This document shows positions 53,909 to 54,395 of a DNA stretch of 64,000 nt, piece by piece. A model generated the notes under the pieces. The model was not told the DNA's origin and did no database searches. It saw only the letters and a list, made by a program, of their open reading frames with translations. Source of the DNA: Acidobacteria bacterium RIFCSPLOWO2_12_FULL_68_19. GTDB lineage: Bacteria; Acidobacteriota; Vicinamibacteria; Vicinamibacterales; UBA2999. The number at the start of each line of letters is the position of its first letter. Within the stretch, counting starts at the first letter, position 1. The stretch lies in assembly GCA_001767525.1 (NCBI GenBank), contig MELF01000005.1, forward strand, positions 1 to 64,000. Direction: 5' to 3'. The translations under genes were made by a program, and so were the position numbers.

Positions 53909-53940
53909 AAAAAAGAGGGGGCGCGCACCGGCACGCCCCC
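53909..53940 (-). terminator. Rho-independent terminator downstream of micro-ORF A
   Basis: Minus strand GGGGGCGTGC-CGGT-GCGCGCCCCC-TCTTTTTT. Confidence 0.85.
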
Positions 53941-53961
53941 ATCCATGGCGAATGGCGGTCG

Positions 53962-54012
53962 TTATCTCTTCTTCGCCGCCTTCTTCTTCCCGCCCTTGGC
54001 TTTCTTCGCCAT
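53962..54012 (-). CDS. Lys-rich 16-aa micro-protein A: MAKKAKGGKKKAAKKR
   Basis: 51-nt ORF, SD-like aaaggggggattagaga before ATG, own terminator, paralogue of micro-ORF B. Confidence 0.7.
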   Translation of the reverse strand: MAKKAKGGKKKAAKKR

Positions 54013-54169
54013 TCTCTAATCCCCCCTTTCGGTCGTTGTTGGATTGCGAGCCTTCCGCCCGATGCCCCGGCGCACTCTGCCGCCTGGCACGTCGGCCCGG
54101 GGTCGTGTGGCGGCCTCGCTTCGCGGGCTAGCTCCCGTCGCACGCTGCGAATCAGGAGAGCAGCAACCC

Positions 54170-54202
54170 AAAAAAAAGACGGGGTGCTCCATTCGAGCAC
54201 CC
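54170..54202 (-). terminator. Rho-independent terminator downstream of micro-ORF B
   Basis: Minus strand GGGGTGCTC-GAATG-GAGCACCCC-GTCTTTTTTTT. Confidence 0.88.
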
Positions 54203-54221
54203 CCAAGACCGGACGGAAGAC

Positions 54222-54272
54222 CTAGCGCTTCTTCGCGGCCTTCTTCTTGCCCTTGGCAGCTTTCTTCGCCAT
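54222..54272 (-). CDS. Lys-rich 16-aa micro-protein B: MAKKAAKGKKKAAKKR
   Basis: 51-nt ORF with SD CTGAGGAGAAAACG-ATG, promoter upstream, terminator downstream, paralogue of micro-ORF A. Confidence 0.75.
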   Translation of the reverse strand: MAKKAAKGKKKAAKKR

Positions 54273-54367
54273 CGTTTTCTCCTCAGGTTGTTGTGACTCA
54301 GCCTCCGACGACCGCCTCGGCCGTCACAACGGGTGGGCTGAGCCATCCACCCTCATACCAGATGTAG

Positions 54368-54395
54368 ATTATGGGTGAGAATTTCTTGATGTCAA
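54368..54395 (-). promoter_or_regulatory. Near-consensus sigma70 promoter of micro-ORF B
   Basis: Minus strand TTGACA - 16 nt - CATAAT. Confidence 0.7.

What the first reader, a model, noticed from the sequence alone, without database searches (positions are those of the whole stretch)
53909..54395. Tandem paralogous 16-aa lysine-rich micro-genes missed by the ORF track
On the minus strand between the HEAT-cyclophilin and TPR genes sit two 51-nt ORFs, MAKKAAKGKKKAAKKR (54222-54272) and MAKKAKGGKKKAAKKR (53962-54012). Each has a ribosome-binding site at normal spacing and is followed within ~20-25 nt by a textbook intrinsic terminator. The upstream one has TTGACA-16-CATAAT. Aligned with codon-sized indels (MAKKAAKG-KKKAAKKR / MAKKA-KGGKKKAAKKR), the remaining differences are synonymous (gct/gcc, gcc/gcg, cgc/aga, tag/taa), which suggests selection on the peptide rather than only on RNA. 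The peptides resemble free-standing histone H1/HU-tail AKK repeats, suggesting nucleic-acid binding (inference). I know of no named family for such stand-alone peptides.
Basis: partly seen in the sequence, partly recalled or inferred. Interest (0 to 1): 0.87.

Follow-up and report, generated by a model that had tools for sequence, protein, structure and literature searches.

The report
Conserved paired lysine-rich micropeptide genes
Two real, tiny genes sit side by side here, each making a 16-amino-acid, almost pure lysine/alanine peptide that looks like a free-standing tail of the DNA-packing protein histone H1, and the pair is conserved, with its promoter and structured leader RNAs, across a whole group of soil and groundwater bacteria.

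Summary
Both 51-nt ORFs are present exactly as described, and they are the only two matches in the 4.2-Mb genome. They belong to an unrecognised gene family conserved across an order of Acidobacteriota, with relatives in a sister family of the same class and one candidate in a more distant family. The locus keeps the same niche (tgt / ddl / [TPR] / micro-genes / convergent HEAT-cyclophilin; 26/26 loci, 15 families). One promoter (TTGACA in 101/102, spacer 16 in 96/102) occurs about once per genome. I collected 156 peptides of 14-60 aa; 152 start MAKK, 153 end KK[RK], and they contain only K, A, G, R, T, V, P, S and one N. Codon-position bias, in-frame indels and A/B peptide matching within genomes (13 identical pairs, none identical in DNA) show selection on the peptide. 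Both mRNAs have covarying, structured leaders absent from Rfam. Several genera lost the genes cleanly. Best reading: strongly transcribed, free-standing H1/Hc2-tail-like polycations that bind nucleic acid, most likely DNA. That function is inferred, not shown. No Pfam, NCBIfam or Rfam model covers the locus. New variant of a known kind.

The parts
54368..54395 (-). promoter of the pair: -35 TTGACA (54395-54390), 16-nt spacer, -10 CATAAT (54373-54368)
   Evidence: TTGACA in 101/102 and spacer 16 in 96/102 distinct loci; motif about once per genome in 122/162 genomes of the order, 0 control matches
54273..54363 (-). leader RNA of copy A (5' end inferred near 54363), with near-invariant 5' end ATCTNGTATGAGG
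   Evidence: alignment A1 of 36 leaders
54336..54345 (-). 5' arm of conserved leader helix P3 (TGGCTCAGCC)
   Evidence: own-partner stem score 17.69 vs 16.19 (sd 0.27, max 17.30) with partners permuted among 71 leaders; compensatory pairs such as TCAATCC/GGATTGA
54294..54303 (-). 3' arm of leader helix P3 (GGCTGAGTCA)
54279..54283 (-). Shine-Dalgarno of copy A (AGGAG)
   Evidence: sequence; SD-like in 68/72 A copies
54222..54272 (-). micro-gene A, MAKKAAKGKKKAAKKR, stop TAG
   Evidence: orthologues
54181..54203 (-). intrinsic terminator after A (T tract follows)
   Evidence: terminator-like hairpin after 66/72 A copies, shuffled control 33/98
54028..54128 (-). structured leader of copy B: closing stem GCGAG/CTCGC, inner CCGG stem, apical hairpin GUGCC-AGGC-GGCAG
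   Evidence: covarying structure found separately in three clades; model R1 scores 91 bits here, one strong hit per genome
54021..54028 (-). extended purine Shine-Dalgarno of copy B (AAGGGGGG)
   Evidence: same type in sister family f16
53962..54012 (-). micro-gene B, MAKKAKGGKKKAAKKR, stop TAA
53917..53940 (-). intrinsic terminator after B (T tract follows)
   Evidence: present after 53/56 B copies

Best explanation
The locus is a two-gene unit that makes a free-standing, histone-H1-tail-like polycationic micropeptide. Shown by sequence: one near-invariant sigma-70-type promoter; a structured leader, SD and ORF A ending at an intrinsic terminator; then a second, differently structured leader, extended SD and ORF B with its own terminator; selection on the peptide; conserved genomic position; occasional clean loss. 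Inferred: (1) B is expressed by partial read-through of the A terminator from the same promoter; (2) expression is high, from the near-consensus promoter, strong SDs and two gene copies; (3) the peptides are disordered polycations (about half Lys, a quarter Ala) that bind nucleic acid electrostatically, most likely chromosomal DNA as the lysine-rich repeats of H1/Hc2-like proteins do, tuning nucleoid compaction or charge; (4) the leaders regulate translation or read-through, possibly by feedback from the peptide.
For: Peptide-level selection: A-A pN/pS 0.34 and B-B 0.44; A-B in the same genome pS 0.56 vs pN 0.06; single-copy 16-mers differ only at codon position 3. A and B peptides match within genomes (mean identity 0.867 vs 0.697 across genomes, permutation p about 2e-4), 13 pairs identical in peptide and none in DNA. 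Composition and ends are strongly constrained over 156 peptides. Fixed niche in 26/26 loci from 15 families. Promoter about once per genome. No promoter found for B, and in f3 genomes the A promoter is joined directly to the B leader. In f14 the same locus encodes 35-65-aa AKK repeats with V, T, P, matching the Hc2 pentamers: two basic residues, otherwise mainly Ala plus V/T/P, with in-frame length variation (PMC2848022). Covarying leaders.
Against: No expression, Ribo-seq, mass-spectrometry or binding data for this locus were available. The longest peptides score below the Hc2 model cut-off (13.7 vs 40 bits). An RNA target (ribosome, mRNA) fits the composition as well as DNA. pN/pS values are crude because the sequence is low in complexity, only same-length pairs were counted and sequences are related. 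Several genera live without the genes.
Confidence: 0.6

Rival explanations
1. The peptides are lineage-specific ribosome or RNA-binding micro-proteins (comparable to unannotated small ribosomal proteins such as bS22, bL37, bL38), and the structured leaders are autoregulatory binding sites.
For: Small ribosomal proteins missed by annotation do occur (PMC10618245). Both mRNAs have conserved structured leaders, as ribosomal-protein mRNAs often do; the B leader has a near-invariant apical hairpin.
Against: Length varies from 14 to 65 aa by in-frame AKK repeats, unlike proteins fitting a fixed rRNA site. Clean loss in several genera. No Pfam or NCBIfam ribosomal match.
Confidence: 0.2
2. The RNAs are the functional products (regulatory or dual-function sRNAs) and the ORFs are secondary.
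For: Promoter, 5' end and leader are strongly conserved in sequence, both leaders covary, and both transcripts end in terminators.
Against: Substitutions follow codon positions and indels keep frame. In sister family f16 and in f3/f14 the leaders differ or are rearranged while the K/A-rich ORF persists.
Confidence: 0.1
3. Lysine-rich attenuator leader peptide(s): ribosome progress through the Lys codons of ORF A controls termination ahead of B.
For: Lys-codon-rich ORF followed by a terminator; B seems to have no promoter of its own.
Against: No biosynthetic gene lies downstream; the next gene is the convergent cyclophilin in 26/26 loci. Families with only A or only B keep the peptide. A/B peptide matching within genomes is not expected.
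Confidence: 0.07
4. Chance or low-complexity artefact, or decayed ends of a longer H1-like gene.
For: The peptides are simple-sequence; AKK-rich tails are common in GC-rich bacteria (general knowledge).
Against: Exactly two hits in the genome; orthologous position, conserved start, stop, promoter and terminator across an order.
Confidence: 0.02

Closest known systems
Chlamydial histone H1-like protein Hc2 (HctB; Pfam PF07382)
   Same: Lys/Ala-rich with V, T, P; length varies by in-frame gain and loss of short basic repeats (PMC2848022); weak resemblance of the 60-aa f14 peptide (13.7 bits, E 0.068).
   Different: Hc2 is 165-237 aa; here 14-65 aa and in this window 16 aa; below the Pfam cut-off of 40 bits; paired genes with structured leaders; no DNA-binding data.
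Burkholderia-type H1-like DNA-binding protein (NCBIfam NF038053)
   Same: Basic Ala/Lys-rich repeats; weak profile resemblance of the 60-aa variant (12.6 bits).
   Different: Cut-off 80 bits not met; model of 195 positions.
Unannotated small ribosomal proteins (bS22, bL37, bL38)
   Same: Very small basic proteins absent from annotation (PMC10618245).
   Different: bL38 and bL37 have specific folds or fixed rRNA pockets; here length and residue order vary freely within a Lys/Ala composition.
Coxiella ScvA, 30-aa basic DNA-binding protein (from memory)
   Same: Tiny free-standing basic protein proposed to condense the nucleoid.
   Different: Not compared by sequence here; known composition differs (from memory).

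Membership tests
Histone H1-like Hc2 (PF07382) | Pfam gathering score (40 bits) | tested here: not met
   60-aa f14 peptide 13.7 bits; joined window peptides, 54-aa and 35-aa variants no Hc2 match
Histone H1-like Hc2 (PF07382) | Lys-rich repeats with Ala and V/T/P; length change by in-frame repeats | tested here: met
   composition and lengths of 156 peptides; f14 long forms
Histone H1-like Hc2 (PF07382) | binds and condenses DNA | not testable with these tools
   needs protein
NCBIfam H1-like (NF038053) | curated score (80 bits) | tested here: not met
   12.6 bits
Small ribosomal protein | match to a known ribosomal protein family | tested here: not met
   no such match in Pfam or NCBIfam
Small ribosomal protein | conserved length and presence in ribosomes | tested here: inconclusive
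   length 14-65 aa and gene lost in some genera; ribosome content not testable
Attenuator leader peptide | regulated gene downstream on the same strand | tested here: not met
   convergent cyclophilin downstream in 26/26 loci
Type I toxin peptide | hydrophobic membrane-spanning segment | tested here: not met
   no L, I, F, W or Y in 156 peptides
Rfam leader or riboswitch family | match at gathering score | tested here: not met
   no match in the locus or in five related loci

The most novel reading that the evidence does not exclude
A class-wide bacterial 'protamine-like' system: two tandem micro-genes give very abundant 14-65-aa polycations that package or neutralise nucleic acid, held at set levels by two new structured leader RNAs through feedback from the peptide, with the same promoter and leader recruited by ftsZ in one genus.
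Probability: 0.3. Interest if true: 0.88.

Novelty: new variant of a known kind. Interest (0 to 1): 0.74.

Why it matters
It would be among the shortest conserved protein families in bacteria, easily missed by annotation because of its length and low complexity, yet with an almost invariant promoter and structured leaders across an order of environmental bacteria. It bears on how little protein is needed for an H1-like role. It gives clear targets: two leader RNAs absent from Rfam and a 16-residue peptide that is cheap to synthesise, with natural loss lineages as controls.

Tried and rejected
Strict ORF pattern across the phylum first suggested restriction to the order (28/43 in-order vs 3/353 outside); this was a limit of the pattern, since the sister family f16 has MPAKKKASKKATKKKK-type genes at the same niche. 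A leader uORF (ATG AGG GTG GAT GGC TCA ...) looked coding in family f1 but is ATG TAG in L115 and L124 and was dropped; my script's frame count for it was off by one base and is not used. RNAalifold on the mixed alignments gave almost no structure; analysis per clade and arm permutation did. Protein database search with a 54-aa relative returned nothing, probably because of low complexity, so absence from databases cannot be concluded. Literature searches found no description of this family. Structure prediction was not run: uninformative for 16-aa peptides expected to be disordered.

Full report
Observation. In the 4.2-Mb genome the peptide-shaped pattern occurs only at these two places, with no match to the reversed control. 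The only sigma-70-like promoter found in 53850-54560 is TTGACA-16-CATAAT, so B has none by that scan.

Distribution. A loose pattern found paired K-rich micro-ORFs in most genera of the family and widely in the order. The promoter/5'-end motif CATAATCTACATCTNGTATGAGG, up to 3 mismatches, occurs in 122 of 162 genomes of the order, almost always once, with no control matches. Record titles of relatives name Acidobacteria, one as 'gp6'. A single-contig genome of 7,480,314 bases in family f15 has, from memory, the size of Luteitalea pratensis, so the order is probably Vicinamibacterales (inference). In sister family f16 of the same class, between the same neighbours, lie MPAKKKASKKATKKKK, MAAKKKAKKAAKKKK and MPAKKKAAKKATKKKK with the same SD type and a TTGACA promoter followed by ..CTNGTATG. 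One more distant family of the phylum has MAAKKKAAKKKATKKKK with SD and a terminator-like hairpin, near a cyclophilin gene.

Position. In 26 of 26 loci tested, from 15 families, the unit sits downstream of ddl (with a TPR gene between in many) and converges on the HEAT-cyclophilin gene, with tgt and a nucleoside-kinase-like gene further out where the contig reaches. In genera g76, g77 and g84 of family f14 the ddl and cyclophilin 3' ends are only 28-115 nt apart and no K-rich ORF remains in those inspected, which is clean loss; g78 and g83 also lack it.

The peptide. From 102 distinct leaders I collected 156 peptides of 14-60 aa; 152 begin MAKK and 153 end KKR or KKK. Lys is 49%, Ala 28%, Gly 7.5%, Arg 5%, then T, V, P, S and one Asn, with no acidic, aromatic or large hydrophobic residue. 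A 65-aa form was seen separately. Family f14 has a single long AKK-repeat protein, f3 mostly a single short one driven by the A promoter joined to the B leader, and most other families have two short ones.

Selection. Pairwise counts give A-A pN/pS 0.34, B-B 0.44; A versus B in the same genome pS 0.56, pN 0.06; eight distinct 16-mer genes of the single-copy type differ only at third positions. A and B resemble each other within a genome far more than across genomes (0.867 vs 0.697; no permutation of 5000 above 0.754), yet the 13 identical peptide pairs are never identical in DNA and differ at 40% of third positions. Recent gene conversion does not explain this; lineage-specific constraint on the peptide does. 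Caveats: low complexity, related sequences, only same-length pairs in the pN/pS counts.

The RNAs. The A leader has a near-invariant 5' end and a helix P3 (GCTCAGCC/GGCTGAGC) supported by arm permutation (17.69 vs 16.19, sd 0.27, maximum 17.30 of 200) and compensatory variants. The B leader folds alike in three clades analysed separately, with both-sided changes in several pairs and an invariant apical GUGCC-AGGC-GGCAG in those aligned (sequences were collected by that motif, so its invariance is partly by selection). A covariance model of it finds one strong hit per genome in family f1 and no strong second site (G029 has two copies, each beside its own micro-genes). Rfam has neither. In one genus (g71) a second copy of the promoter and leader lies directly upstream of ftsZ, so the module can be moved to another gene.

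Mechanism. I take the peptides to be free-standing H1/Hc2-tail-like polycations binding nucleic acid, most likely DNA. Composition, repeat-length freedom and the long f14 forms argue for a disordered polycation, not a folded or membrane-active peptide. Hc2 shows the same kind of composition and in-frame repeat variation and binds DNA (PMC2848022). The ribosome is the main rival target. B by read-through and leader feedback are inferences. Membership in Hc2 or other H1-like families is not claimed: profile cut-offs are not met.

Verdict. A real micropeptide family with conserved control elements that no model in the searched libraries covers; function inferred. New variant of a known kind; interest 0.74.

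Noticed in passing
L120, L122 (family f13, genus g71): A second copy of the micro-gene promoter and leader sits directly upstream of ftsZ (TIGR00065, 410 bits), about 34 kb from the micro-genes.
   Followed up: partly
window 54396-54425 (-): A second conserved TTTTTGACA box lies about 20-27 nt upstream of the promoter's own TTGACA in most f1, f2 and some f3 loci; possible regulator site or alternative promoter.
   Followed up: no
window 54356-54324 (-): Short leader uORF ATG AGG GTG GAT GGC TCA GCC CAC CCG TTG TGA near the inferred 5' end; looks constrained in f1 but is ATG TAG in L115 and L124.
   Followed up: partly
L207 (phylum-level family f33): MKKGKR ORF behind an AAGGGGGGAAAG SD, followed by a terminator-like hairpin; a possible even shorter relative, or chance.
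   Followed up: no
L170 (G150, f14 genus g83): The micro-gene niche between ddl and the cyclophilin gene holds an unrelated longer insert of about 1.2 kb with no K-rich micro-ORF.
   Followed up: no
window 40284-40381 (+): TPP riboswitch (Rfam RF00059, 60.8 bits).
   Followed up: no
window 1656-1789 (+): Group II intron match (Rfam RF00029, 46.2 bits).
   Followed up: no
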